A stretch of DNA of 64,000 bases from Lepisosteus oculatus. Its lineage: Eukaryota; Chordata; Actinopteri; Semionotiformes; Lepisosteidae. The stretch's first letter is position 1. The number at the start of each line of letters is the position of its first letter. Below, piece after piece: positions 1-62,918 of this stretch. The notes under the pieces are model-generated. The model was not told the DNA's origin, searched no databases, and saw only the letters and a program-made list of their open reading frames with translations. The stretch lies in NCBI RefSeq assembly GCF_040954835.1, contig NC_090706.1, positions 38,449,148-38,513,147 on the forward strand. The letters are read 5' to 3'. A program made the position numbers and the translations under genes.

Positions 1-55
1 TACCGGGAAGAGGAGCAGATAGTGGACTCGGCTGACTTTCGGATCCTCAAGAAGA
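1..55 (+). CDS. MYOT: MYOT upstream exon, middle of an N-terminal Ig domain (partial)
   Basis: Reads from base 1 in frame as YREEEQIVDSADFRILKK plus one base, followed by a GTAAGC donor at 56. This is the middle strand region of an I-set Ig domain; the cysteine and tryptophan of its first half must lie before base 1. The hanging A joins AG at 535 to make Lys. Confidence 0.75.
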
Positions 56-3000
56 GTAAGCAGGATCACTGAACCTGATTGTGCCCTCCGAAACACAGGC
101 TGGCTGACTAGTTGGTTGGTTGGTTGGTTGGCTGGCTGGCTGGTTGATTGGTTAGCTAGTTGTGAGGTTTAACAAGCAATTACTATTTCCAGTGTGTTAA
201 AATATCCAAATGAAATTATTCTTATCAGTTGTGAAAGCCCCTCAATCAGAGCTTTCTGCCAAAGCTGGTTTGGTATTAAACACAGTGACCTCTCTCCTCT
301 TTTTCAGAAGCCAGTTCTGTATCGGTACCTGGTGAGTGAGCATCACAATTTTTTCTCAAAAATATCGAGGGAAACAAAATGGGGAATATGATCCAATCAG
401 CTGGTGATTTGACACCTTGAGGTGTCTATGATGAGGTCTTGGATAAAATCAACATTTTGTTTTTAAATTGTACATTAGCATTGTGCTAAAAGGGTTATGC
501 ATCCAGCTCATAGCGTCTCTGTTTCTGTCCCCAGAGGAGGTCTGCACTCTGGTTATTACAGAGGCTTTCCCAGAGGACTCTGGGATGTTTAAGTGTGTGG
601 CAGGCAATCAGTATGGCACAGTGTCCTGCAGTGCGCTGCTGGATGTCTACTCAGGTAAATACAGGCCCTCTCTGCTCATTGGTATTGAACTGCTAACTCC
701 TCTGTGTAAAGTCAGCAGCTATGGCAGTCTTCTGTATACAGTATACTGTACATGTCCAGCTGATTAATACTTCAGCTTTTTCCAGAAAAATATGTTAAAC
801 TTCCAAATATTATAACCTGTCTTTTCCTAAAACATCCCAGACTTGCTGCCTTAGATATTAACAAATCCACCCTTCGCATGCAATTAGAGTCTACTATATA
901 CATCTGTTGTGTGAGTTTAGAGTGAACTGTACACATCGTTGCTGAAATCACATTTGCTTACAACATAAGAGCAGGAAATATTATACCGGAAATATCTACT
1001 GTTTTGTTTTATTTGGAATGCAGTTACAAGTTCTTTCATCATTTACACTACTTTTTGCTCAGGAAATACATTTCTCTAGCATATCGCAGCACATAAATCA
1101 CACTAGTGAATCAAAACTAGAACTGTAATATATATATATATGCCTGTCTTACTTCATACTTTACAAAATGCTGGCAAAAAGGTTTTGATGAGTGGATGAT
1201 GTTGATATTAATAGTTTATGCTTTGTGTTAGTGTTGTAGGATAGGGGTTACAGGTTAGGGTTGTTCCATGTACTATTAATTGGATCAGCCTAACTTGCTT
1301 TGTACTGACTGACACCCTCTCTCTCAGGACAGCAGTTCTATTGACCAAGAATCTCTGCTTTCCAGGGCTATTTGAGTCTCTTTTACGTGAAAAGCCCACA
1401 TGAAATTACTCTCAGTGTCTGAAAAACGATTGTGTGTGAGTTGAGCTCGTGTCGCGGGGAGGAAAGAGCCCTGCTGCGCTCCAGACCTGTCTGTGTGATC
1501 GCCCACAGGCCTGGAGGAGGTGCTGGCCCACGAGGAGACCACCAGCTCTCCTGCAGAACCTCTCCCCGACACCCTGCCCTCCTTCCCGCATGGCGCAGTG
1601 GAGATCCCGCCCCCAGAGTGGCCAGACAGCCCCGAGGAGGACAGCGAGCCCTGTGCGGACCCCTGCTCGGAAGGGTGAGACCACCGGCCTGATTCCCCGT
1701 GGCGCGCGCTGGTACCTCTGCAGGGGAGCTGGGTGCCTCCTCAGTACAGTACAGAGTTCCAGGTGTAACCCTGGCCCCCACCCTGTCCTCAGCAGCGACC
1801 AGAGAGTCCGCTGCTCCGGGAGCATTGTTCTGTTGCAATCAGAAGGATGTCCAGACCAGTGCGCCAGTGTATTGCCAGTGGACACGGGGCTGCAGGCGGT
1901 GCCTTCTTTGTAAAGAGAAGTTAAATAGAGGTCCTGAATATTTGGCGATGAATGCATAGTTTGTTAGAGTAGGGCTATTAACTCCAGTGTCCTGGTTAAA
2001 TTGAATGCTGCGATCAGGTGCCCCCTTAATCCAATTGGTAACGCAAATTCTCGTTTCTCCACGGGGTTCTGCTCTGCACTGAGGCTGCTGGTGCGGAGAG
2101 GTTCCGGCCCGCGGTTCTGTGGTGGATGAAACTGGCTCTTTGGAATGAAGGACGCTGTTTACCTGCGAGGAATTACGTGTTTACCGGATCGGCCCGTAGT
2201 TTTGTAGTGTTGCCAGAAGAGGGAGCCACTAAAACACATCTGAAGAGTGAAATTACTTTCTGCGAGAGATATAGCAATCGGTTTCCCTGGTACTGCTCAT
2301 GTCAGGAATAGAACACCCACCCATTTTCAGTCCACTTTTCCTGGTGGGTTTTTCGTACAAATTAAAAATGCAAAACTCTATAACCGTTCATTGTTGATTC
2401 AATTCAATATAAAGTAACGAACTATGTGAACATAGTAAGAGGCAAGACTTTGCCTCTTGACTGCGTTTTAAAAATACATTACGTAAATTTAAATTTAATA
2501 CATTTTTTTCTCGTCAAGCGGTATTGTGTCTGTATTGAAAATGAGCTACAGTCACTAATGTGCTAAATATCAAAGGAAAGAAAATGGTTAAAGCTAATTA
2601 TCATTAAGGGTGTGTTATCAGTTAAAATCTTTATGCCTTGTGTACTTCATACCACAGTGTACACATAATGATGTAAAAATTTTAGTGGAGTTTTATTTGA
2701 AAAATTCCCTATTTTCCCCACAATCACTTTCTGTTTGAAGAACTGAAAGCGTAGTTGGGAATTAACCTGGAACTGATACCAGAGAAACCACTTTTATGGT
2801 TTCAATAGAAAGACGAAATATCTGCCTTGTCTTGGTATCGGTTTGTCTGAGAGAGTGCTCACTGTTCGGATTTGAAATGGCCAGAAGAATAACTAACACA
2901 TTGAACACGGCATGTGCGCAACAATGTTGGGAAATTGAAAAGCTATTTCTGATTTAAGTTACGAAACTAAACAAGTACGTCAGGACCTAATATTATTAAT

Positions 3001-6000
3001 AAGAGTACTAGTATTTTATTACTGTTAAGTACTAGTACTATTCGCAATGAAAGTAACAGCACAGCTAGGTTACCCTAGGTTTTAGACTAACCTAAAATGC
3101 AGTGAAACAACTTGTTTTTTTTTATCTGACTGATTATTTCTAAAAGCAATTAAGAGGGGGTGCGGCTAGCGACCTGTTGGGTGATGTTGCAAAGTAAACG
3201 ATACACGTATAAATAGATCATCCACATTGAGCTGACGGCGTGCGAAGACGCCTCCTGAGCTCAGAAAACTGGAGAACGACGTGGGTATCAGCGGGTGTCC
3301 CCCTCCCACGTCACCACCCGAGCTGCAGCGAATAAGAGGAGCAGAGTCGGGGCTGTCCGACCGCCTATCCACCCAGCTGCTGTGAGCTCGTCCGAGCTGC
3401 AGCGCTTCATGCTTTGTTCGTCCAGACGCGCTAGCTGTTGTTAGCAGAGTATCCGCGGAGGTGAGCTCAGGTAAGCCGGTGTGTTGGTTCTTCAACCAGT
3501 GTGCTCACAGAGGGAGGGATAAGCGGATCGCTGGAGAGCAGACTGTAGTGTTTCCTGCGTGAACAGGTGGTCTTGGATTGATCTCTGTTCTCTTCGGATA
3601 CTTGCAGGGGGAAAAGTGAACAAGTTCACCGATTGAATGGTGGGTCCCTTGTCTGCAATGTTTTTGAGGCTTGAAGGTGTTCAGTGTCGGCTTTCTGGGT
3701 ATTTTCGGAACTTGTTTTGAAACAAGTGTTGAGCACTTCAAGGACCTTCTTGGGGAAAGTAATGCTGCCTTTTTTGAAAAAATCGAATCCATTATCGGCT
3801 TTCACTGTGATAATGGGATGGTGGACAAACTTTCGCGTGTCGCGCCAAATTGCGGGAGATGTTCAGGCTTCACAGTTAACTGGACCGGGCGATGTTCTTG
3901 TTTTTGGAAATTGGAGCAATTTCATTTGCTAAATTGCTGTCGTACAGTAGTCTTCTGAAAACTCATACCGTGCAGTTTAAACATTTATCTTTTTGAAAAT
4001 GACTCAGAGTATTTTTCTTAAGCAATTGGATTCGAAATCGTTCAAAATGATAAATAAGGATTAATACAAAAGGCAGCGGTCTATTCCAGGACCGTCTTCT
4101 ATTTAACACCGTCTAGTTTGCACAGCGGTCAGTGAGTGTGAATAGGTGCTTGCAGCGCTCTGGAATGCGTGATGTCATGGAATTGTGTGTCTTCCAGTCT
4201 TTTCATTCCCCTAGCGCAGTTCCCAGAACAGAACTGGACGTATTATTTCCTAGGTATGTGATACAGTCATTGTTATAAGCTCTCGCTAGACAGGCGTTCT
4301 CGGATTTCCTCGTGTGTTGATTTTTTTTTGTTTGTACTTGTAGCTAGTAAATCCCGAAACCCGGGTTCAAACTGAAGGGCAACACATCTTATTCTCATTC
4401 CTGCACATCCGTTAGGCCTGGGAGAGTCCGAGTCAGGTCTGTGCTAAGGGCAGTGGACTCTACTCTTTGAAATAAAGGCACATGCAGAGGCTACTACTGT
4501 ACTTGTCACTACCGAGAATTAAACCTTGGTGTGGCGTTTCTCTGGATGCCGCAGTCTTCTGAGAGCTCCGAGTCTGTGCCACCTCTCCAGTCCTGCTGCT
4601 GTACAGTATATAGAACCTGCCTTGGCTAGACTCCTGTCGCTGTGGTCACTGGTCAGAGAAGAGAATCTACAGGTCTTTCCCTGGCTAGGGGATTTCATCT
4701 TGGGGCTCCATCTCGGTTTGTTTTGGTCGCCGGAGAAAGGCGCAGGGAGTGTGTGTGTCTGGAGAAGGGGCTGGGTGGGCTTCCTGGGAGAGAACGGGGT
4801 AGACCCTAGGGAGGAGCTGTAAGGAATACCAGCGGTAGCTCAGTCTCTTTCAATAGAGCCAGTGTCTGTGTTCTGTGCTCTCTGTTTCCCAGGCATTCTC
4901 TGCCCCAGTTGCATAAATGGGTACACGGGGTTTGTGTGAGACAGCAGGAGCTCCTGCTATTCTGTCGGGACCTTTTGTGTCGGCTGCAAGCCTGGGATAA
5001 AGACCCTGTGTTTTCTCCCTTGCCTGTTTTCAGAGACTTTGTTCAGTTTTAATTGATAAGATGAGAGACCTAGTGCCTTTTTGGTTGTGTGTAAACTCTG
5101 GTTGGACCAAATGAAGATCCATAGCATTTACCCTTAAATGCATAACGATGTTTTTGGTTTCTTGATTCTATCCTGTGTCATGTTAAACGCTTCAGAATTC
5201 AGCATTAAGGGCACATGACAAACATATGTGCACTGTACCTTACAAACTCCCATCTCATCGTCTTTCAGCACGCAGGCGTATTAAGTTTAGTGATGTAACT
5301 GAAATGCACAGGGATTTAGGAAACATTTCTGTCCCCCCGGGTTGGCTTAGGCTACAATTACAGGTTCGATGCAAGGGGATCAAAGTGTGTAGTTTGCTTT
5401 TACCCACAATCCCCCGGTGTCAGAGCAGTGTGCGTCATACAGGACCACTGAGATGGTCTGCACCTGCTGGGCACTGTCAGATGCCTTTCCTGGCTCCACT
5501 AAAGTGCCATAGGCTCTAAAAAGGGATATGAACATTTCTTTCCGTTCCTGGTGCTTTTTTTTTTCCCCCTCCCAGTGCTCACTCATTGTTTCGTGCCCAT
5601 GAAATAAAGGGGATATTTATGAACTGCAGCCAACATAACCCGCTGACAGATTAGAGCCTGAATTACTTGAGATTCTTCCGTTTTCAATTCCCAGATATCC
5701 TATACATGTCCTGCACCCCCGGTGCCATCTGGGTTTTTCATCCAGATCGCTTTTTTTATTCTATAATTATTTACTTTAAAACATTTTTTCTAAAGCACAC
5801 TTAAGAACGTACTGTAAGACAGACTGCTGACGAGATGGAGCGGGCACTTTCGGCAGTGCTCACTTGGTGGTTAATTAGCTACTCCTCCCTTTTGTGTATC
5901 CTCTGCCAGTTTTGATGTGGCTGTAACAGAAGCTAGACCATTGGTACTGATCAGAAACAAATACCTAGACATGCATGCCTTACCTTGAATTCTTATGGCT

Positions 6001-9000
6001 TGTACTTTGTGGATTAACCTTTTTGCAAGGGACTTTATCAAAGGATTTCTGGAATTCTCAGAAATGTCAGACTTAAGTGGTATCCTCTTCCTTGTTGCTT
6101 GTTTAACTTGCAGAAATTCTATTACAATACTTTTGTTTCTAGATCCATGTTGTAGAGAATGTCCGTGTCTGACACAAGATGAAGCTCTGTAGATTCCAAA
6201 GGTTCCCAAAGTACTCCTTTTGTAACAGCAAACCAATGCCATCCTCCAGTGGAGTGCAGCACCCACCTGGATAATAGATTAGTTATTTTGCACCAGCAGC
6301 CCCACTGCACAGTAGATCAGGGGGAAGCCTATTGAATTAAGGGGAAACGCTAGGGAGTACAGGTCAGGTTAAGGTGTATCTAGGATACCAGAGTTAACAA
6401 CCCTTGTGAACGTACTGTAAATGATGGGGTGTTGGTTGAAGCGCAATCCAGATTGGTTTTGGAATAGGAGTCCCACGTACCGTCTTCCGGTTTTCAGTCA
6501 CAGATGTGTGCTATAATTGCCTATGAAAGAATTGTGGGATTGTTGTCTCCACAGGTGTACAGAGCAGTGGCAGTGCACTGGTACCCCAGCAGAAGAGCAG
6601 CACCGCCCTGCCCTCGGTGAAAGCAGGGTACCTCCCCCAGCCTGCACGCTACCCTCACAGCGGGCCGAGGAGCCAGCCAGCCCCCGCCACCCCAGCAGCC
6701 AGCGAGACCCTCCGGGCGACATGAGCATGGCCGACTTCCCCTCATTCTCCCCCACATCCTACCCGCCCAGCGCCTTCAACTACGAACGGCCGCGCCACTT
6801 CATCCAGGCTCAGCCGAGGTTCCAGGCCCCGTCCTACGAGAGCCTGCAGCCCCGCCCCCCCCAAGCCTCCGCCGCCTTCCCCAACGGGCACAGGGCCTCC
6901 CCCTCGTCCTCCACCCTCAGCTCTCCCGTCTCCACGCCGTCCTCCTCCCTCGGCTCTCCCCGAGAGCCCCCCGCGCCCCGGCCGGCCTCCCCGTCTCGTG
7001 GCCCCATGAAGTCCAGCATCACCCTGGTGCCCAGGGTCTGCGCTGGTGCCCCCTCTCAGTCTCCAGCTGCCTTCATCAGCTCTGTCCTGCCTTGTCCGGC
7101 AGCTTCCCAGTCCATGCCAGCCTCCGTCCCCCCACCGAGACCCCCTTCCCCTGCGTACTCTCCGCGCTCTCCCACTCCCCCAAGACTCTCCCCTCCTGTG
7201 CCCCAGAGTGCCTCTGGCCAGCCTGCGTCCTTGCCCGCTAATCACAGACCAGCTCCAGCAGTGGAAACGTAAGTAGTGCCTCTCCTCTCCTCTCCTTTGC
7301 ATGCTTTCGTGCTCACTGCTCGGTGTTAGAAGTGCCAGGCATCAGAATCTGTTCCTGTTCCGTGATTTTTAAACCGTCTGCCACTCCCGATCCGGAAGTC
7401 CGACCTGGGGTGTGCTTATCTGGGTTTCAGAACTCCTCTGTGGACTTGACCTAGAGGTGATCTGGTTGTCCCTTCGGTCACCGGTAACCTCTGGCCTGTC
7501 TACCCCCCCCCCCCATCCCTCCGTATAGCTTCCCAAGACAGATCCTGAAGAAGAAGAGCCCCCGGCCTGCCTCCCACACTACGGACGAGGAGATCCAGGG
7601 TTCCAAGGACGCCCTGATCCAGGACCTGGAGAAGAAACTGCGCTGCAAGGAGGCGCGGAGAAGGAACGGCAGCCAGGTGCGTCCTCTCCCTGCCCTCCGC
7701 CCGCCCCTCCTCGTTCTTCCCCATCTTCCCATGCGAGTGGGTCATTTTCCGGTGCTTTTCCCAAGTGCCCACTATCCCACGTCCTACGTAAAGCGTTGAT
7801 GTTCTCAAGCTGGTCAAATTAATCGTTTCTGTACAAAAAAAACAATGTGGTTTTGCTAGTATTCAATTTTGCAGTTTTCCTCATTGAAATTAATCTTTAA
7901 ACATTTTAGGGGAGTATATTCTTGGTGGGCTGACTCTTACTTTGCTTTCAGTGCTGATGTTTAGCGAAAGCGTACAACCCACAATCATCAGTACCAGCTC
8001 AGCAAAGAGCAAACTACAAGATGTCTCTGAAATCTGATCTCTCAAACCCTGTCCTTGTTGTGCTAAGTGGGCTCCAGCTGACTTGGCAGTGCTCTTGAGT
8101 GCTTTCATTTTTTCCTGGTTTCTCTGTTGTGGACTTGAATGGCAGTGAGAGTAACCTAGCCTGTGCCCTAGGCTGTAGAGCAGCCGAATGACCTTTTCGG
8201 CAGCTGTCCTTGCCTCCCACCGGTCAGCGGGTCAAGGGGGGTATCCGTGCAGGCCCTGACCTGGTCTTCGCTGTCCCCTGACAGAAGCTGACCTATGAGG
8301 AACGGATGGCGCGCCGGCTGCTGGGTCCGGACAGCGCTGCCTCCGTGTTTGACATCGAGGGCTCCCAGGACTCGCAGACAGAGGTACAGTAGGGAGATGT
8401 CCCTCCTGCCGGCAGTGGTCTGGTCAGAATGGAATCGCAGAAGAATGTGACGACAGTCTTGACAGGTTTTTCAGGATTGTTGAGAGACTGGACTGCAATA
8501 CTTCAAATACTGTGTGTTTTCAGGCTCAGTGTGGGTAGAAGCCCTTTATGGTTAAATATATGCCATAAAGAATAGCAAGATCATTTTTATTGTCCCTCAG
8601 CATGAAGTTTTTTATGGACGCTCATTGCTTCTGTACTTCTGAATGCGTAAGGTTATTGGGATGTCTTTATCTCTTAGAATCCGGTCAGGTAAAATTGCTA
8701 CTTTTGCTCAGTAGCTGGGTAGGTAGTTCACATACAGTACGATGGTGCTTTGCATGCATCCAGCTGACATTTTTATACCTTTTCTCACTCTTGTTTCTAC
8801 AGCAAAATTCACCAGACAGAAAACACACCAGCCAAGGACAACAGCGGTAAATGTTTACCTGTTTATTACTTGCCTCATAATTGCAAAAGGGGCGATTTTT
8901 TTAAAAATCTGTATCCAATTCAGGGTAATCTGTTCTTGACAACGATGCCAACAGTTTTTTATTAAAAATAATTGTAAGTCGAGGCACATTTTTGCAGGAC

Positions 9001-12000
9001 AACTTTTTTTTTTGTATCAAGCCAAGTGGAGCAAGAAATACAATTCCCATTGCACAGCAGTTTGGCTCGGAGTGCGGGCTATGTAGTGATCTCCACTTCA
9101 CGTCCAGAGGGCCACAGTCTGCCAGATTTGATAAGAAACCTGTAGAAAAGTAAAGAGCTGGATGCGTTGGTAATACGGGCAAAGTTTAGCGAACAGTGAG
9201 CTTTTAAAAACCCTTCTGGTCCGGGACTGTTGCCACCTTCTGTTTGTCTTGTGCATGTTGTACCTAATCGAGTGGGGGGAATGGCAAAAAATTCAAGTTA
9301 AAACTATATAACTATCGAGGAGTAACTACTCCACATGTGACAATAAGCCTGAATTATCCAGAGCTTGCGGGTGGCATTGACGCACAGGCCTCCAAACACT
9401 CTGCAGGTGGATCTGATACACTGCAGGACTGTAATCCTCTCCTCCTTCTGGAGCGCCGAAGCCCTAAAGGCTTTAGGGGGAACTCGGGCTCCTCAAAGGT
9501 TAAAAATTTGGGATACCAAGCCAGAACACCCTGCAGCTCTCCAGGACTGGGGGTCACGGCTATAGGGCCTTTCCCCCCTCCCCGCATGTCTAAAGGTATA
9601 ACGCGCTGATCCTCTTCTCCAGTTGCAAGCTGGGCTCCTCTCCATGGCTGGCAGTACTGCAGCCCTATTGCGCTGCTGCCATTAGACGTCACTGGCTCCA
9701 TTCCCTGAGCAGAGATGTAACCTCGACAATTATAGAACAGTAAAATGACCCACTGTGACCTCTCTAGTCTCACTGTAAGACACTTGAGAAGTCGTCAATA
9801 ACACTTGATAAACAGTGTCCCTCTCGTTTGCAGTGTGCAGGAGGGTTTTCTTGAACTGTGCCTGCCATGCTGTCAGTATCCAAAAACCTTTCCTTTTATT
9901 AGTTCTAAAAATAGTTTGCACTTATTCTGCCCTGTTTATTTGTATGACTGCAAACCGTGTTATACGATGTGTTGTGAGGTTACCAGGCTTTCACAGTGTG
10001 CCCAACTAAGGTTTACAAGGAAACCAGTAAAGTAGAGGCTAATTGCACTCTGAAAAGCTGATGCAGACTGCTGAGCCTTCACCTTTAGGTGTGCAAAAGA
10101 GAAAAGCAGATAAATGTACGTTTATGCTCATCATCCGTTTACCCTTCAAGAGCAGCAGTCAGACAGTCTTAAAATCGGATTTAGAAGAGGGGCTGGTTTC
10201 TCAATACAGGATTTGGGGTGAAACCCTGGGTGACCCCTGTTAAAACTCCCGGTGTGGGCCAGATGGGTTCTTCCAGAGGCCTGTCGTGATCCTGCTGCAC
10301 AATCAACAGATTAACTTGTGTTACTCAGTACCTATTTTCACTAGTGCAGCAGGACAGGGGAACCATTTGTGAAGAGAAGGGTCTCAAATTCTGTTTCTCA
10401 AGAATCTAGTCTTTTTTTTTTTTTTTTTCCCTGAGCAGTCAATTAACCCGATTATACATCTATAGAAAATATAGGATTTTTTGTCAAGTTCTTTTATGGG
10501 TGATTACTTGAAACATTCATATCCATTACATGTACAGCTACCTGTAAAATGCCTCTTGGTGTTGGAAGTAAAGAGTTTTGGACTAACTGCTGTACGGAAG
10601 GAAGGCTTGAGTTGAAGCTCTAAGCTCCTTCTTCCCGGCACAGGAACATGCCCGAGTCGGGGTCGGAGGACCCCGAGACTGCCTCCATCCAGGAGAAGTG
10701 CTATGCACCCCGCTTCCTGCAGGTGCCCCAAGACCTCACTGTGGAAGAGGGCCGCTTCTGCAGAATTGATTTCAAGGTAGGCCTGGCCCGCTGCCTTCGT
10801 GTGAAGTTTCTCAGTGTTTTGCCGTGAAGTGTTGAAGGGTGTGAGGCACCAAGCAGCACCAAGCATGTTGAAATGGGTGCCCTGCGGGAGGAAGCATTTT
10901 CATCTTTAATGTTTGAATTCACTCTTCATGCATTTCTTCTCTTCAGTACCTGATCTGCATCTAGTCCTTCCTCCATCTGCCATTAACTCTGTCCGTCCGC
11001 TGACGGCCAGTCGCCCCAAATCTGCAGCTGATTCCTGTGGTGTGTGGAAAGAGCAGTAAGGAATTAACTTTGGAAGGGCTTCCTAGAACAAAAGATCAGG
11101 AGAGAGGAGAATCCTCATACCATGCTTACAGAGCAGAATAAAGTGAATGCATGCTTTGTGAGAAGCAGAATTTTCTAATGTGTTAGATTTGGCAAAAGAG
11201 ATCTGCAGGGGACGTTGGCTGTATCCCTGTAAGGGAACAACTAGGGCAGTGGTCCCCGATCCTGGCCTGGTGACCCACACTCCTGCCGGTTTTCATTCCA
11301 GCCCACCTTCATCAGAGCTTTGGAGCATTAATTCACCAAGCGGGTTGTCTGAATATTTGTAAGTTTGGCATTTCATGTTTCTTGTGAAATCTAATTGTTA
11401 AAGACCACCCCCAACATGTTGAACGGAACCTAGCAGGAGTGTGGACCTCCAGGAGCCTCATCAGGAAGCCCCGCAGTAGAGACAGCGCCCCCTCCTGGAC
11501 CAGCGCTGGTCTAACAGGGGTGGTTTGCTTGCAGGTGGGGGGGCTGCCCACCCCAGACGTGTCCTGGTATTTAAACGGGAAGCTCATTGGCCCTGACGAC
11601 TACCACAAGATGCTGGTGTGCGAGAAGGGCGTGCACTCCTTCATCATCGAGATCGTGACCGTGCACCACGCCGGCGAGTACGAGTGTGTGGCCCGAAACC
11701 GCGCAGGGGAGAGCCGCTTCACCCTGCACCTCAGCGTCATCGGTGAGCCGCTCGCTGGGGTCCGTTGTCCACATCCTCGCCCCGTACAGCGCTGCCTTTA
11801 TACTCTCATTCTAGTGATCGGGGTATGCTCTAGTAGGCCCTGCAATATGAAGTATCATACCACCGTACACCTTTCTCTTCTGTATGTTTTAAGCTTGTTT
11901 GTATTTGTAGTATAGTTAGGGTCTTTATTTTTTCCTCCCATGACATTCCTTTGGCCATTTCAGATTCCCACTAAAGTGCTCTTAATTACATAGAGTTAAG

Positions 12001-15000
12001 GCCTGAGCTGCTTCTTTCTTGACAACACAGCTGCTGACTGTTTTGCTTCATCAGTTAACCCTGGCAGAGTTTCCAGGAGGTGTTGGTCACAGAGCCTGTT
12101 CAAGTTGCATTTCAGTCCTGCTGTATACCGCTGTACTGTACATGGGGCATTGCTTGTCCTATGATGTAGTCTGACAAAATTGTTTTCACCAGAACACAGC
12201 TGGTATACGCCTGTGTTTCTACATAGGGAACTAGTGAGGACGCAGCGTATGTTGATTGTATTTTAATGGGATGATGTAAATACAGAAGATTCTGTAATAC
12301 AGAAGATTCAAGAGAAATAAAGTGAAAGCAGCATGCAAAAGATCAAGCCTGTTTAGCATGAAATGTATTTCCAGGCAGAATTAATCATAGATTTTTCAAT
12401 GTGTGCTTTTTTGGTGGGGAGGGGGGGGGATTAGATTGTGTGCTATTCGCCTTAATCTCATTTCAGTAGGTTGACTAACCATAGTGAATCATGTAGCCAC
12501 TCGCAAAGTAATCCCGTGTTTTAAAAACCTCAGCCACAATTTGTTCTGCTAAATCGGCGGTGTTTGTCTGGGGTTAGTGGAGCGTGGCACTGCCGCTCTG
12601 AAAGACAAAGCAAACCAGTTGAAAAGTTCACGGAGATCTGCTCTCCGAGTGGCTTGTCGAAAGCTGTTGCCATTCCACTGGCTGACGGGGATGCTGGGAA
12701 ATAAGGTTGGCCCGCTCCTTAAAGGAAACTGTGATGTGAGAGAGCTGTCCTGGCCCTGTGCTAGATAACGGCTATAGCAGTAACAATTTACTGCTGCTGC
12801 ATGAACAGAAACATTAAGAGGGTCTTTAGCAATTGGTTGACGTCTGAACTGGTTCCAGAACCATCCCCTGTGAATTGGGAGCTCTCGTTTCCTTCATCTT
12901 CCAGCCTGCAGCCATTAACTTCCCCATCGCAGGGGCAGTCTTTTCTGGAGCAGAGCTTCGCCTGGGCCCCGCGACGCCCCTCTGACGTTGCCGCGGGTCT
13001 GTCTTTGCCCCCAGCCCAGGAGCTGCAGCGCCCCCCAGTGTTCGTCCGGAAGATGCAGAACTCGCGGGCTCTGGAGGGGGACTCCGTGAGGCTGGAGTGC
13101 CAGGTCTCTGCTTCCCCGCCACCCCAGCTCTACTGGAAGAAGGACAAGGAGATGATGCGCGTGGATCCGGGCAGAATGAGGTCGGTGAGGACACCCCGGT
13201 CCCAATGAGCTGCCACACTCTCATACACCAGCCCTGCTTAGAGGACTCCGCTGCATTCACTGCAGACTCTGTGCTTTGTAGAGGCACAGCCTTCCCACTC
13301 TGCCTCAGCAGGAATCTTTGACTACAAGTGTCCAAAGCATGTTCTCAGTCTTAAGCCTCTTTTAACCCTTTAAGCACACGGAGCCCCCCAGTCAGATTGT
13401 TTTAACACTTTCAATAACAAGGGATTGCACCGACGCAATCCTAGGTATCGTTTTGTCATCAACTACAGCATCCAGGACAAGACGACTTCTGATTCTGTTG
13501 ATCTAATGAAATTAATTGTCGCGTGACTGAAATTCTACCTGGAAGGGTGTCTGCACAGGACGACTGCAGGCAACGAACGGGCTAAATTTGGAAATATTTG
13601 CAAAAGCAGTCCAAGAAATGCATCCCCATCATCAGCATTGAATTTGACTTCTGGTTTTGAAAGCACCAGTCTGACGGTGGCCCAGAAGCTTCTAGTGGCC
13701 AAAGTAACTGAATTGCTCTTTGGAGCCCCGTATTCTAATTTACAGGGTGAATGTAACATCTTGCTTCTCTTTATTAGCAGGAGCACAACACAAAGAAACA
13801 TGTTAACGATATGAAGCCTTTATTAATGGTGTAAAGCACCATTCACATAATGGGAGGGCAGGGCAGGGGAATGCTTTCTTAGTGCAAAAACATTTAGACA
13901 AGCGCCTGCAGTAGTCTGCAAAGCTGCCACCAATGGTACAGTACACCATGAAAGCAGCTCCTTTCCTTTCGCAGTCTTGGTAGAGCGATGAACCTATTAC
14001 TGCAGATGGGGTACGAGTTGGCCACATTGCAGTTGAGGGAGCACACGAGAACTCTCTTTTGTTTAAGGGGGGATTTGAGGGATGGAAGACTAGTGGTGGA
14101 TGTGACCCTCCTTTCAAAGATCAAGCAGTAAAGTTTAAAAAAAAAAAAAGAGGAAAGGAGTTTTTGCTCGTGCAGGGTGGCTTGGAAAAGGTACGTGCCC
14201 AGCTGAAAAGGGTGGAGAAATTAACATTTCTGGCTGTGTGTTGCAGCTTATATCAGGATAACTCCGGGCGCCTCTGCTTGCTGATCGACCGTGTGGAGAA
14301 GGCCGACGCAGGCTGGTACACCGTGTCGGCCATCAACGAGGCCGGCATGTCTACCTGCAATGCCAGACTGGATGTGGGGAGTAAGTAGAGCACAGCTCCT
14401 CCTTTACGTGCCTGGAGTGACCTAAGACCTCGAAGGGCGATTGGGCTTCAGCTGTTTTATGTGCAGCTCAGTCTTGCTGACATCTGAGGGGGGTCCCCCG
14501 AAAAAAGGGTGGGAGAAATGTTTTGATCCAGTGTCTCCAATCAGTCAAGACGGATCTTTTCTTTTCAAGCTTTTTCCCATCCCCACCGATGCATGCGAAA
14601 AGCATCCTCAGACCTGCCTGTCTTGCCTGTAAATGCCTACCTTTGTAAAGCGCAGCATCAGCGACTGTGAAGAATTATACAGCGCCTGATCGGAGATGAG
14701 GGGTGTCATACGACAGAGTGCTGATGGCTCTGCTGGTTTTAACAATTAAAAACACTGACGAGGCAGACTCTGCGCCTAATTTGTAGAGTATGTAAATAAA
14801 AGGGTCGTTTAGCCTTCCATTTGCTCCTGGCTCGGGCTGGTGTTATTGCTAGATTAAATTGCTATAATGAGCCAAAGCAGACGCCAGAGAGCATGACTAC
14901 TGCTGGGAAAAATGTGCTGTATAGTGCTGGGCAAGAGATTGACAACGATTCAGTTCCTTCTGTGATCAGGTGTCAACCTTCCAGACGTACTGCAGTAGTT

Positions 15001-15904
15001 ACTGTTAACGTGGTCTCTGCTGACTTAATCAGAATGATAATTTCAATGCCTGAAGTAGACAAAAAATTGGGCGTTTCAAGGAACGTTTTTCTTTGGAAAT
15101 CTATAACCCCTTCTTATTCCTGCCAAGGATCCTTTTGGCTTTTTAACTGAGGGTGTTGTTTCAAACAGGACTCTGGACATGCACTCTGAGCACAGGGAAG
15201 GATTGCCTTCCCAACCAGCAGGGTTTCAGCTGTAACTGGAGCCGTGCTCAATGTGGCAGCCTCTCTGGCTCGGGAATAGAGGAGTGACCACACATGCCTG
15301 TCTAGTAGCACATGAAACCTTATGCGATCGCCTCCGTGGTGGCGTCAGACGGGTTATAAATCTGCTCTGGATTGGGGCATCCCACCCTAAAGGACCGATT
15401 GTGAAGCGACTCCTATGTTTGTCTACTGGACTGCTAAGTCCAGCCGTGGGGACGAGCCGAGAGTTATGACAAAGCACTGGATCTTTCTCACTGAAGCACG
15501 TGTGTGAATGGATCCAGCCCTGACCAATCTTGCTGTGGTTCCTGACCCAGTTAAAGTCAGCATTTTTAGTGAGGATTGTTGTGCTTCTGTTGATTTAAAG
15601 CACTTGCCCCTGAAACGCTTTCTAAGCCCTCCCATCTGTCTACCGGGGCAGCTCTGTAGGTGGAGGCGTCGGGAGTCCTCCATTTCTGCCTTGTCGACTG
15701 TGCCCTCCAGTCGCCCCCCTGTGGTTACTGGCGGTCCTGACGTGTTGTGTTCCGTTTTGTTCTCCAGCTCGCTTGACCAAGGCCGCCACCGTCGCCAAGC
15801 CCCTGAAAGTGCGCCCCACGTTCAGCCAGGGCCCAGCGCTGGCCGGGCAGGGGGCTGGCGGACCGCGGCAGCAGGCTCCCCTGTGCGAGAGCGAGGAGCT
15901 GTAA
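1..15904 (+). CDS. MYOT: Myotilin (MYOT), long palladin-like gene model, 5' partial
   Basis: Sarcomeric Z-disc protein of the myotilin/palladin/myopalladin family, which binds alpha-actinin, filamin and actin. Coding exons: (1)-55, 535-654, 1509-1674, 6555-7268, 7529-7676, 8285-8383, 8803-8846, 10644-10776, 11535-11742, 13015-13180, 14247-14380, 15768-15904. The body from 6721 is unmistakable myotilin: FNYERPRHFIQ near the start, the DEEIQGSKDALIQDLE and LTYEERMARRLLGP motifs, two C-terminal Ig domains, the KVRPTF motif and a terminal ESEEL, the class III PDZ-ligand type known for this family. Starting at Met 6721 gives 538 aa (human about 498). The three upstream exons add half of another Ig domain and an acidic linker, and their phases (1, 1, 2) fit the 6555 acceptor. 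No palladin-type third Ig sits between 8846 and 10644, which supports MYOT rather than PALLD or MYPN. The long form is inferred from phase only; the short form is secure. Confidence 0.93.
111..164. repeat. (TTGG/CTGG)n simple repeat
   Basis: A degenerate tetranucleotide run of GGTT, then GGCT, then GGTT units lies 55 bases into the MYOT intron. Confidence 0.85.
535..654 (+). CDS. MYOT: MYOT upstream exon, C-terminal half of the N-terminal Ig domain
   Basis: Preceded by a CCCCAG acceptor and followed by GTAAAT. Encodes EVCTLVITEAF, then PEDSGMFKCVA and GNQYGTVSCSALLDVYS, the D-x-G-x-[YF]-x-C hallmark of an I-set Ig domain. It resembles the N-terminal Ig of palladin and myopalladin, which human myotilin lacks. 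It ends in phase 1. Confidence 0.85.
1509..1674 (+). CDS. MYOT: MYOT upstream exon, acidic proline-rich linker
   Basis: A CCCACAG acceptor precedes a 54-codon open frame beginning LEEVLAHEETTSSPAEP and ending EEDSEPCADPCSE, followed by GTGAGA. The frame has no ATG and only appears when the 535-654 exon phase is carried through. The two hanging G bases complete Gly with the first base at 6555. Composition (Glu, Asp, Pro) suits a disordered linker. Confidence 0.72.
3208..3215 (+). promoter_or_regulatory. MYOT: TATA box of an internal MYOT promoter
   Basis: A perfect TATAAATA stands about 30 bases upstream of a sharp change from AT-rich DNA to a GC-rich block (about 3238-3470) that ends in strong splice donors. 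An E-box (CAGCTG) lies at 3374-3379. It is placed to drive a myotilin form that starts after the upstream Ig exons. Inference from position and motif only. Confidence 0.6.
3240..3470 (+). other. MYOT: Candidate untranslated first exon of short MYOT
   Basis: GC-rich stretch between the TATA box and two overlapping donors, GAG|GTGAGC at 3461 and CAG|GTAAGC at 3471. Spliced to 6555, the first ATG met in the next exon is 6721, the natural start of the myotilin body. The exon carries a 12-codon upstream ORF (3409-3444) and a 13-base direct repeat at 3318 and 3392. The transcription start is estimated from TATA spacing. Confidence 0.5.
6555..7268 (+). CDS. MYOT: MYOT exon with Ser/Pro-rich region and short-form start
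   Basis: Acceptor CCACAG, donor GTAAGT. Before 6721 the frame is open (linker in the long form). From Met 6721 (MSMADFP) it encodes FNYERPRHFIQAQPRF, the family signature found at the start of human myotilin, followed by about 150 residues very rich in Ser, Pro and Ala. A second ATG at 6727 has the better Kozak context. Ends in phase 2. Confidence 0.93.
7529..7676 (+). CDS. MYOT: MYOT exon, DEEIQGSKDALIQDLE motif
   Basis: Encodes a Lys/Arg-rich lead, then DEEIQGSKDALIQDLE and KKLRCKEARRRNGSQ, closely matching the human myotilin segment before its first Ig. The acceptor pyrimidine tract contains an unbroken C12 run at 7503-7514. Ends in phase 0. Confidence 0.93.
8285..8383 (+). CDS. MYOT: MYOT exon, LTYEERMARRLLGP motif
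   Basis: 33 codons, phase 0 on both sides. KLTYEERMARRLLGPDSA is the most conserved non-Ig motif of the myotilin/palladin family; the exon ends DIEGSQDSQTE. Confidence 0.94.
8803..8846 (+). CDS. MYOT: MYOT small linker exon
   Basis: 44 bases, TTTCTACAG acceptor and CG|GTAAAT donor, encoding QNSPDRKHTSQGQQ plus a split Arg. It is needed to restore phase between 8383 (phase 0) and 10644 (phase 2). It corresponds to the variable linker before the first C-terminal Ig. Confidence 0.85.
10644..10776 (+). CDS. MYOT: MYOT exon, start of first C-terminal Ig
   Basis: Encodes an acidic lead, then IQEKCYAPRFLQVPQDL and TVEEGRFCRIDFK, the A to B strands of the first C-terminal Ig including its first cysteine (about residues 302-324 of the short form). 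Confidence 0.94.
11243..11470. repeat. Palindromic MITE-like element in a MYOT intron
   Basis: The left end (GCAGTGGTCCCCGATCCTGG then CACTCCTGCCGGTTTTCATTCC) and right end (GAACGGAACCTAGCAGGAGT then GTGGACCTCCAGGAG) are degenerate inverted copies of each other. I recognise this as a common fish interspersed repeat type. A related partial copy lies at 38150-38330. Boundaries are approximate. Confidence 0.55.
11535..11742 (+). CDS. MYOT: MYOT exon, rest of first C-terminal Ig
   Basis: 69 codons plus one base. Encodes VGGLPTPDVSWYLNGK with the core tryptophan, then HHAGEYECVARNRAGES with the second cysteine. It completes the Ig at about residues 302-393 and is nearly superimposable on human myotilin. 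Confidence 0.95.
13015..13180 (+). CDS. MYOT: MYOT exon, start of second C-terminal Ig
   Basis: Encodes QRPPVFVRKMQNSRALEG and LECQVSASPPPQLYWKKDKE. The donor is the weak GAG|GTCGGT at 13181: only this site gives phase 2, which joins C at 14247 to form Ser in the family motif SLYQDN. A better-looking GTGAGG four bases on would shift the frame. Confidence 0.93.
14247..14380 (+). CDS. MYOT: MYOT exon, end of second C-terminal Ig
   Basis: Encodes LYQDNSGRLCLLIDRVEK and ADAGWYTVSAINEAG, the F-G strands of the last Ig. GTAAGT donor, phase 1 out. Confidence 0.95.
15768..15904 (+). CDS. MYOT: MYOT last coding exon, C-terminal PDZ ligand
   Basis: Encodes a basic tail with KPLKVRPTFS and ends LCESEEL, stop at 15902-15904. 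The KVRPTF and SEEL features match the human C-terminus; the segment between them is shorter and Gly-rich here. Confidence 0.94.
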
Positions 15905-16423
15905 AGACGACGCTAGATGCTAGAGTCACGCCAGGGCTTGGATTTGTAGGTTCGTGGGCGTGCTGGGGGGGGATCCTGGGAGTGGCTCCCTCCAGGAGGT
16001 GTACACCAATGGCCCGTCTCTCTGCCCTGTTGCCACTGATCGACCCGCTATCAGAACACAAATGAGTTCTCCCCCCCCATCCCCTCCACCACTGGGAACT
16101 GAGAAATGTTTTAAATTTCTCCCTTTACAAAGTGTTTCGCAAGACAGAACTTAATAATGGTTAGAAATTAGAGAGCTGTCTTGTATGTATGTTTTGAGTC
16201 ATGTTTTTATTATACAGAGCCAGATTTATTTCTATCAAAATAATTTAAAAAAATTCTAATATAAGCTATTTAATAGGAAACTGGTACTGGAATATTTAGT
16301 AACATCTCTCAGAAAGCCTTCTTTACTTAAAAGGGTTGTCTTTCTTTCTGCCACTAAAAATGTGAAGCCACAGACTTGGAAACACACACTTGAATTGTAT
16401 CTGTAAGAGTTTAAAACCTAAGC

Positions 16424-16429
16424 AATAAA
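16424..16429 (+). terminator. MYOT: MYOT polyadenylation signal
   Basis: AATAAA, 520 bases after the stop, followed within 30 bases by T-rich sequence. First canonical hexamer in the 3' UTR. Confidence 0.6.
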
Positions 16430-16891
16430 GTTTTCTTGAATACTTCCGTTTCCTACTCGCAATTGTACAAGGTGGGGTAGACAATATGGATCATAAAGGA
16501 TTTTGACTTAAGAAATAATGAATTTGTTGAAATTTTACTGTCCAGAAATCAGCCAGGCATGTTTCACATCTAGCATGTGTCAAAACCTCTTCACAAGTAC
16601 CTGAAAACAGAAGAGCTATTAGCTGCATGCTTAGTGCTATTGCTGTCCATTTAAAAGTGGTTTTTGAGTGGTTTGCACATTAGAAAAATCCTTTTACAAA
16701 TGGTTAAAAAGAACTGAATCTGACTTCTGCCAGTCGACATTTCATTAAAAGGTAAAATTGCTTTTCTATGGTGTGGATTTAGCAAAATAAACATCATTAC
16801 CTCTTGGTTTCAACCAGCCTAAGCTTTGTGTGGCAGTCAAATATCAATCACAGAGGAGACTAATGTATTTAAAAGAGCCTATAAGGGTTGA

Positions 16892-35145: not shown

Positions 35146-38100
35146 GTGGGCAAGGGAACTCGGAGACGACAGGCCAGCATTTTACTACTAATAATAATAC
35201 TACTGCTGCTACCACAACTAATAATACTACTACTGCTGCTACCACACTAATAATACTACTACTGCTGCTGCTGCCACACTAATAATACTACTACTGCTGC
35301 CACACTAATAATACTACTGCTGCTGCTGCCACACTAATAATACTACTACTGCTGCCACACTAATAATACTGCTGCTGCTGCTGCCACACTAATAATACTA
35401 CTACTGCTGCTGCTGCCACACTAATAATACTACTACTGCTGCCACACTAATAATACTACTGCTGCTGCTGCCACACTAATAATACTACTACTGCTGCCAC
35501 ACTAATAATACTGCTGCTGCTGCTGCCACACTAATAATACTACTACTGCTGCCACACTAATAATACTGCTGCTGCTGCTGCCACACTAATAATACTGCTG
35601 CTGCTGCTGCCACACTAATAATACTACTGCTGCTGATAATACACTAATAATACTACTACTGCTGCTGATAATACACTAATAATACTACTACTGCTGCTGA
35701 TAATACACTAATAATACTACTACTGCTGCTACCACACTAATAATACTACTGCTGCTACTACTGATAATAATACTTGCAAGTTACATTTCTATATGTTACA
35801 CAGTGCTATTGCTAGAAAACGACTGCAGATTATTGGTTTGTTTAGATATACATGGGAATATTAGCATTTCTGTCTTATTCTAACCCCCTGCTGTAACCAT
35901 CTGCCTCCATTGCGTTGAAAGACACGAAAAGGTCAGATTTAAATGTGGGATTGTGATTCAGCCAGTGATGGCGAGAAAACAAGGGCCCAGAAGCAACAGG
36001 CAAAGCCACCAAGTCTAGGCAGGGAGGTACTTTATTCACCTCATTCAAGTGCTACAGCAGCCAGGCACAGAACATCAGCACAGAACATCAGCACAGAACA
36101 GCACAAATATAGTAATATGATAAATAAATGTACAGAACACAAGGAAGATGTAATACACAGTATAGATATTGCACACTCCCAAGCATATTGGACAGAGTAG
36201 GTAACTAGTGCAACTATCGCACAGTTGTGAATAATCAATAAATTGCCCATGTCAGTTCCACGTATCGCACTTCCATAAACCAGATGTAGACAGAACACCA
36301 GTAAGACAGAGCACCAATTGTTACAGAGGTATACATTTATTTGGTCAATAAAGTTATCTGCTTTTTTGACTGTGTTTCTCAAAAGATGAGACGGAACTAC
36401 GGTATGCCAGAACAGGATTGCGTGAAGTTTGTGATTGTTAAAGATCTGGATACAGTGCCACATTCTGTCTTACATGACAGTCAATAAACCAATAACAATC
36501 GATATGGTAAAGCCGGCAATTCAATAAATTACTCATTTATTGTATTGATTGCATGTAAGTGTCAGCCTCTCTGAACAGTAATAAAAATCAGTGAAGCCAC
36601 TAATAAGCTATAAAGCTCCTTGCTTCATGAAGGCTGGAATCTGATTTTTGGAAAGGCATGGTTACATTTTGCATTGGCAGTTTGTTCCTTTGTGGGTATT
36701 TCAGCAGTGCAATGATGTATGTAGAACACTCTTCTTACTTAGCCAGATGTGTCTTTAGCAATTTAACCTATATTTATTCTTTCTTAATTGTTCCCAGCAG
36801 GATGGCATTAAGAGAGCTTGTTTTCAAGAGTGTCCTTGCCATGACCTGTCAAGCGCAGTTCTCAGCTGAAACACCTGTTCAAAGCCTTTAAATGTCAAAG
36901 TAACCACGTGGCCATTAAAGCACCCTCTCGGTTTCCATGACTCAAGAGAATATGAATAGACTTGTTACTGGCTGATTCTCTTTTCTGAGGCCCTCCGTTC
37001 TCCCCCTTGTCTTTCAGAGGAGGAAGCAGAAGATCCTAACCAGGACACAGTGGAGCAGATCTTGAAGTGCATCATTGAAAACGAAGGCAAGTGATGCAAT
37101 ATTCCGGCTGTGCAGCACACTTCTGCGGAAAACCGCTGCGTTGTTATCTGCTACCAGACGTTAGATAGAGATCACTAATGTTGCCTAATTGTTATGTTGT
37201 TTTTAAAAGCTATTTTTCGCCCCGGCAGCTTACATGTTTATTCAATTCATCACAGAATCTTTGCATCTGAATTATTTTCTTCGAGCGTGGGTGTTTTCTT
37301 AGCCCTTCGAGTTGACTTTTACGGAAGGGGTGTCGTTAAATAAATGTAGCTGTTGTTTTTTCTGTTGTGATGAGTTTGTGAGACTTTCCCCTACTTCCTG
37401 CAGGTGCAGGAGACAAAACAAACTCCTCTGCCCTAGGCACATCACCCCTTAGGGACCTCATGTTTTTGAAGGAGTTTTGAAACATTAGGGTATGATGGTG
37501 GTGGTGATCTTCCTCAGAGCTCCAGGGTCCAAGGTCCCATTCCTGTCTAGGTTGCCTGTCTGTGTGGAGTTTGCATGTCTCCATGATTTGTGTGTGAGAT
37601 TGTTAACATCATTATTGTCTCTCCTTGTAGCAAATGTAGAAGCCCTGAAGGAGATGTTGGTAAACCAGAATGTACCAGATCACATGGACCAAAGGTACAA
37701 ATTAAAGTCGTCGGCGTGCGTATGAACATAAGCATGTGTGTTTTAAAGGTCCATCTAATACCTGACCCCCTTGAAAATTTTTAACTCAGTATGTTTCTTG
37801 TGCCAGTAATGTTGCAGAAGTTTCAAACAGTGCCACAGTAGTTCGGAGGGTGCAGAGTTGCTGCTCAAAAGTATAGTAAATAAACGTTATAAGCTTGTTA
37901 TTTAGGTTAGAACAGACAAATTCTCTCTGAGCTCCTAGAACTGATTATTTATGCAATCATTGTCAGGGATGACATTTTATATAAATGTAACCACTCACAG
38001 ATTTGATACCTTTATGTTTGTGAGCCCAGGTAATATATTGTCTGGGACTTCTAGCCTGTTCCACTTCTGTTTTCCATCATCTGGCACAGACCTGGCCAAC

Positions 38101-49400: not shown

Positions 49401-62918
<13,518 letters not shown>

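What the first reader, a model, noticed from the sequence alone, without database searches (positions are those of the whole stretch)
1..7268. Myotilin gene with an extra N-terminal palladin-type Ig domain
Three upstream exons (end of an Ig domain, then an acidic linker) connect by exact phase (1, 1, 2) to the classic myotilin body. Human myotilin has only the two C-terminal Ig domains; palladin and myopalladin have N-terminal ones. This fish locus may preserve the ancestral family layout, with the N-terminal Ig lost later in other lineages. The third exon's frame contains no ATG, so ATG-based ORF calling misses it.
Basis: partly seen in the sequence, partly recalled or inferred. Interest (0 to 1): 0.78.

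Follow-up and report, generated by a model that had tools for sequence, protein, structure and literature searches.

The report
Myotilin gene with extra N-terminal Ig
Upstream of an otherwise ordinary myotilin gene, probably from a fish, lie intact exons for part of an extra immunoglobulin domain like those of palladin, which suggests a longer muscle protein that human myotilin seems to have lost, though no RNA was available to prove that the parts are joined.

Summary
The window has four upstream coding exons, not three: 1-55 (cut by the window edge), 308-331 (24 nt), 535-654 and 1509-1674. The first three give the C-terminal half of an I-set Ig domain. It aligns without gaps to palladin's second N-terminal Ig (35 of 58 identical; palladin letters recalled). 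All join in one open frame to nine myotilin exons ending in ESEEL (715 codons). The body is myotilin by its Ig domains (PDB 2kdg, 2kkq).

My reading is a palladin-like nested gene. A long transcript carries the N-terminal Ig. An internal promoter (TATAAATA at 3208, non-coding exon ending at 3470) makes classic 538-residue myotilin. Exon 1509-1674 would set the frame: included, it leads into myotilin; skipped, it gives a stop overlapping the myotilin start codon.

Limits: the join 1674 to 6555 is unproven, and 6555-6720 does not look clearly coding in the required frame. No palladin-like Ig3 was found, so the layout is not fully ancestral. No related genome could be searched; the species is unknown. 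Published passages that I read describe a two-Ig, single-isoform protein.

The parts
1..55 (+). Upstream exon (5' end cut by the window): YREEEQIVDSADFRILKK, mid part of an I-set Ig domain; donor GTAAGC
308..331 (+). 24-nt exon, phase 1 to 1, part of the same Ig domain
535..654 (+). Exon with the C-terminal strands of the Ig domain (EEVCTLVITEAFPEDSGMFKCVAGNQYGTVSCSALLDVYS), phase 1 to 1
   Evidence: codon test 0 of 400 (24); second-best exon candidate in 1-16500 (25)
1509..1674 (+). 166-nt acidic linker exon, phase 1 to 2; proposed frame-setting cassette exon
   Evidence: 0 of 400; best candidate in 655-6554; 11 of 300 shuffles match; donor third best of 412 in 656-6554 (35)
3208..3215 (+). 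TATAAATA, candidate TATA box of an internal promoter
   Evidence: Only TATAAAWR match in 1675-6555 on either strand; about half a match expected there from the window-wide chance rate
3238..3470 (+). Candidate non-coding first exon of the classic myotilin transcript (start inferred from the TATA box), donor CAG|GTAAGC
   Evidence: Best donor of 412 in 656-6554, but 98 of 300 shuffles hold one as good (45); joined to 6555 the first long ORF starts at ATG 6721 (41)
6555..7268 (+). Myotilin exon with FNYERPRHFIQAQ; 6555-6720 is 5'UTR of the short form or linker of the long form; ATG 6721
7529..7676 (+). Myotilin exon
8285..8383 (+). Myotilin exon (LTYEERMARRLLG)
8803..8846 (+). Short myotilin exon
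   Evidence: codon test not supportive (P 0.65)
10644..10776 (+). Myotilin exon, start of the first C-terminal Ig
11535..11742 (+). Myotilin exon, rest of the first C-terminal Ig
13015..13180 (+). Myotilin exon, start of the second C-terminal Ig
14247..14380 (+). Myotilin exon, rest of the second C-terminal Ig
15768..15904 (+). Last coding exon, ends ESEEL and stop

Best explanation
This is a myotilin gene that still carries the palladin-type N-terminal part of the family. A long transcript starts upstream of the window and encodes at least one N-terminal Ig domain (only its C-terminal half is visible here), an acidic linker exon (1509-1674) and then the whole myotilin body. An internal promoter near 3208 starts a second transcript with a non-coding exon (about 3238-3470) that encodes only classic 538-residue myotilin. 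In function the N-terminal Ig would add a second attachment point, by analogy with palladin Ig1-Ig2 (reported to bind CARP/Ankrd1 and FHOD1), to a protein whose C-terminal Igs bind F-actin and whose ESEEL tail binds ZASP. Shown by sequence: exons, phases, open frame, Ig homology, myotilin identity of the body. Inferred: the splice 1674 to 6555, the internal promoter, the upstream Ig1, the binding partners, and loss of the N-terminal part in human myotilin.
Against: 6555-6720 is not clearly coding in the required frame (P 0.06; the competing frame 0.04). With codon usage of the body the required frame scores -6.7 against off-frame reading and the competing frame +2.95. A phase match alone has a one in three chance. 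Exon 535-654 scores -3.0 against introns with that codon table, though +11.3 against off-frame reading. The linker exon does not match the recalled palladin linker; the competing frame of 6555-6720 just reaches its shuffled 95th percentile (49 against 49). The donor at 3470 and the TATA box are not significant one by one, and high CpG is not confined to 3200-3599. No RNA and no orthologue could be examined; viral and prokaryote contigs gave no relative, as expected.
Confidence: 0.66

Rival explanations
1. The upstream exons are a separate transcript unit that ends before the myotilin body: a short N-terminal-only Ig protein, by read-through of the 1674 donor (stop TGA at 1676) or by skipping exon 1509-1674 (stop TGA at 6722, overlapping ATG 6721).
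For: Both stops are real and give a clean end; with exon 1509-1674 skipped, 6555-6720 is read in the frame that scores slightly better and that just reaches the shuffled 95th percentile against the recalled palladin linker. Palladin is reported to have early termination and potential truncated N-terminal transcripts (PMC10069870, passages). A polyA-like hexamer lies at 2361.
Against: A stop at a phase-2 GTGA donor is automatic and carries no information. The phase-consistent path into the body is open.
Confidence: 0.17
2. The upstream exons are relics: the long form is no longer made and only the short myotilin transcript from the internal promoter is expressed.
For: 6555-6720 looks like untranslated sequence; a promoter-like block lies between the two parts.
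Against: Exons 1-55, 308-331, 535-654 and 1509-1674 have no in-frame stop and keep splice sites, and the three that were tested have codon-like content, which points to selection still acting.
Confidence: 0.1
3. The upstream exons belong to a neighbouring palladin-type gene or were placed here by misassembly.
For: The exons run off the window edge, so their own start is unseen.
Against: Same strand, right order and compatible phases for long palladin architecture; the exon scan gave no better candidate on either strand between them and the body.
Confidence: 0.07

Closest known systems
Human myotilin (MYOT)
   Same: N-terminal part with FNYERP-like start (recalled), two C-terminal Ig domains, ESEEL tail
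   Different: Human myotilin is described as two-Ig (PMC5479843, PMC8062120, passages) and single-isoform (PMC10069870, passages); here upstream exons add part of a further Ig and a linker
Palladin (PALLD), 200-kDa isoform
   Same: N-terminal Ig, linker, FNY-RP body and two C-terminal Igs in the same order (body order recalled); nested promoters in the literature
   Different: No Ig3 found in the window locus; linker exon not alignable; the first C-terminal Ig is closer to myotilin than to palladin
Myopalladin (MYPN)
   Different: Not compared directly: no myopalladin chain appeared in the PDB tables shown and its letters were not typed

Membership tests
Myotilin (MYOT) | Two C-terminal I-set Ig domains closest to myotilin Ig1 and Ig2 | tested here: met
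   First: 2kdg 136.5 bits against 2dm3 121. Second: 2kkq 135.9 bits, the best single-domain chain; titin 3b43 ranks above it by summing six domains, and no palladin chain is among the 22 listed, so this domain was not set against palladin
Myotilin (MYOT) | C-terminal ESEEL motif | tested here: met
   Model ends CESEEL*; motif from PMC5479843 (passages)
Myotilin (MYOT) | Alpha-actinin-binding hydrophobic motif in the N-terminal region | tested here: inconclusive
   PAAFISSVLP present in the translation; its equation with the human motif is recalled
Myotilin (MYOT) | Only two Ig domains | tested here: not met
   Upstream in-frame exons with half an Ig domain, if they are part of the transcript; for the short form the feature is met
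Myotilin (MYOT) | Position on the 5q31-type synteny block | tested here: inconclusive
   RELT-family domain (84.5 bits) and an SH3 gene found; one HDAC-like piece is below the Pfam cut-off (16.6 against 27.9 bits) and the other has no match; names RELL2, FCHSD1, HDAC3 and the human order are recalled
Long palladin / myopalladin architecture | N-terminal Ig of palladin type upstream of the proline-rich body | tested here: met
   35 of 58 identical, no gaps, against recalled palladin letters; only half the domain is visible
Long palladin / myopalladin architecture | Third Ig (Ig3) before the C-terminal pair | tested here: not met
   tblastn with palladin Ig3 (checked against 2dm2): 7 hits in the window, of which E 1.2e-6 (13035-13145) and 0.005 (543-647) fall in other Ig exons and the other five have E 1.9 or more; none lies between 7268 and 10644. 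A strongly diverged Ig3 could be missed
Long palladin / myopalladin architecture | First N-terminal Ig (Ig1) | not testable with these tools
   Would lie upstream of window base 1
Long palladin / myopalladin architecture | One transcript joins N-terminal Igs to the body | not testable with these tools
   Needs RNA; phases are compatible

The most novel reading that the evidence does not exclude
Myotilin began as a long palladin-like protein and shrank in two independent steps: Ig3 was lost first, and the N-terminal Igs later and only in some lineages, when the upstream promoter was dropped and an internal promoter took over. In this lineage the long form survives and a 166-nt exon acts as a frame switch: inclusion gives an N-terminal-Ig myotilin that could link the Z-disc to CARP/titin, and skipping gives an N-terminal-only Ig protein whose stop codon overlaps the myotilin start codon.
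Probability: 0.4. Interest if true: 0.62.

Novelty: new variant of a known kind. Interest (0 to 1): 0.48.

Why it matters
Myotilin mutations are associated with myofibrillar myopathy (PMC8062120, passages), and the protein is described as having two Ig domains (PMC5479843, PMC8062120, passages) and a single isoform (PMC10069870, passages). A surviving long form would show which parts of the family are ancestral, would make the order of domain losses testable in gar, bowfin, sturgeon and shark genomes, and would predict a myotilin able to use palladin's N-terminal partners. It would also explain human myotilin as the product of an internal promoter.

Tried and rejected
Ig3 search: tblastn with palladin Ig3 over the whole window found only other Ig exons at E below 1, so a complete five-Ig layout was rejected. 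Alternative acceptors inside exon 6555-7268 in the right phase are weak (6627, 6696, 6699: scores 0.1 to 0.7). Further linker exons between 655 and 6554: no independent candidate scored above 3.0, with lengths of 50-500 nt, acceptor at least 2 and donor at least 3. Minus-strand exons opposite 1-6555: one candidate, score 2.6. A recalled palladin linker had no tblastn match in the window at E up to 1; of three stretches compared with it, exon 1509-1674 and the required frame of 6555-6720 stay below their shuffled 95th percentile and the competing frame of 6555-6720 equals it. Pfam on the joined model: I-set in two stretches, the best being the first C-terminal Ig; the position of the other is not shown; a V-set match at the N-terminal half is below cut-off (14.5 bits). 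Related loci in viral and prokaryote collections: none confirmed (2 and 78 pattern matches). Paper searches for a long or N-terminal-Ig myotilin: (20 of 20 listed; 25 of 79; 15 of 1330; 15 of 61): no listed title or shown start of an abstract described one. Searches (20 of 268; 12 of 1474), on the structure of the human gene, returned mostly unrelated papers, so the statement that human MYOT has a non-coding first exon remains recalled.

Papers: PMC5479843, PMC8062120, PMC10069870, PMC7333403, PMC1851013 and PMC2859948 were seen as passages only; the others only in listings.
Full report
What is there. The + strand of 1-15904 holds a gene model of 13 coding exons that join in a single open frame of 715 codons, cut at its 5' end by the window. 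The last nine exons (6555-15904) are myotilin. The first C-terminal Ig matches PDB myotilin 2kdg at 136.5 bits against 121 for 2dm3, labelled KIAA0992 and palladin by recall. The second matches myotilin 2kkq at 135.9 bits; titin 3b43 ranks above it through the sum of six domains, and no palladin chain is among the 22 listed. The protein ends in ESEEL, the ZASP-binding end of myotilin in PMC5479843 (passages). The ATG at 6721 gives 538 residues.

Is it more than chance? With a recalled human codon table and 400 dinucleotide shuffles per exon, 3, 0 and 0 shuffles reached the observed score for 1-55, 535-654 and 1509-1674 in their predicted frames. As a yardstick, eight of the nine body segments tested in the same call (6721-7268 and the eight exons from 7529 on) reach P 0.0075 or less; the short exon 8803-8846 does not (P 0.65). 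With the codon table of the body instead, 535-654 scores +11.3 against off-frame reading but -3.0 against introns, and 1509-1674 scores +15.9 and +31.9. In a scan for exon candidates with recalled splice weights, 535-654 ranks second in 1-16500, and 1509-1674 in its phase-compatible frame is the best between 655 and 6554, at 9.2 against 3.0 for the next independent one. Against block-wise shuffles of that stretch, 103 of 300 contain some candidate as good and 11 of 300 a phase-compatible one of at least 100 nt. Exon 1509-1674 is therefore well but not overwhelmingly supported.

The weak joint. In 6555-6720, the part between the acceptor and the myotilin ATG, neither candidate frame is clearly coding: the frame needed for the long form has P 0.06 and the frame reached by skipping exon 1509-1674 has P 0.04. 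With the codon usage of the body, the needed frame scores -6.7 and the other +2.95 against off-frame reading. This is what a 5' untranslated stretch would look like, and it weakens the claim that phase alone proves the join. If exon 1509-1674 is skipped, translation stops at TGA 6722, overlapping ATG 6721; if its donor is read through, it stops at TGA 1676. The second stop is automatic for a GTGA donor in phase 2.

Internal promoter. Within the 4.9-kb intron lie TATAAATA at 3208, the only TATAAAWR match on either strand in 1675-6555, and at 3470 the best donor of 412 in 656-6554; the second best is at 3460 and the third is the donor of exon 1509-1674. CpG observed/expected is 0.92 and 0.81 in the two blocks of 3200-3599, against a window median of 0.47, but it is as high or higher in 2800-2999 and 3800-4399. 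Singly these are not significant: 98 of 300 shuffles hold a donor as good, and the TATA pattern has about 6.8 chance matches in the window (12 found). Together they fit a non-coding first exon at about 3238-3470. Joined to 6555 it has one upstream ATG with an 11-codon reading frame and then the 538-codon frame at 6721.

Mechanism. Palladin is described as a nested gene with alternative promoters in all vertebrates (PMC2859948, passages), with four alternative promoters and early termination, while MYOT and MYPN are described as single-isoform (PMC10069870, passages). Promoter regions of its three main isoforms were tested by reporter assay, the authors noting that the predicted elements themselves were not proven (PMC7333403, passages). 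I infer that this myotilin locus keeps the same plan. The long form would carry the N-terminal Ig. In palladin the Ig1-Ig2 region was found to bind CARP/Ankrd1 and FHOD1 by yeast two-hybrid screening, so the long myotilin may do likewise; this is analogy only.

Evolution. Palladin Ig3, searched by tblastn over the whole window, has hits below E 1 only in exons 13015-13180 and 535-654 and none between 7268 and 10644. If the family ancestor had five Igs, as palladin and myopalladin have, this locus lost Ig3 and kept at least one N-terminal Ig. Whether other vertebrates share it was not testable: five calls to the genome search did not complete, and the viral and prokaryote collections gave no relative. 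The published survey of 85 vertebrate myotilins from Chondrichthyes to Mammalia, in the passages that I read, mentions no N-terminal Ig in myotilin, but its sequences were filtered by hand, so long models may have been set aside (PMC5479843). Public genome annotations may already hold a long model; I could not look.

Surroundings. Further along the window lie an HDAC-like gene on the minus strand (one piece 16.6 bits in Pfam, below cut-off; the other piece without a match), a RELT-family gene (84.5 bits) and a minus-strand SH3 gene. I recall HDAC3, RELL2 and FCHSD1 as neighbours on human 5q31, near MYOT, which fits.

Noticed in passing
6721-6724: ATGA: the myotilin start codon overlaps the TGA that would end a transcript skipping exon 1509-1674.
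   Followed up: partly
6555-6720: The stretch is open in two frames; neither is clearly coding, and the one not used by the long form scores slightly better.
   Followed up: partly
35183-35762: Tandem array (29-bp unit, score 750) that begins inside the open frame of the RELT-family gene.
   Followed up: no
40850-40927: 30-bp tandem repeat inside a 240-codon open frame (40331-41053) giving repeated acidic MED-type units; no Pfam match at E up to 0.1.
   Followed up: no
51229-51600: Minus-strand SH3 domain (Pfam SH3_9, 50.2 bits), FCHSD1-like by recall.
   Followed up: partly
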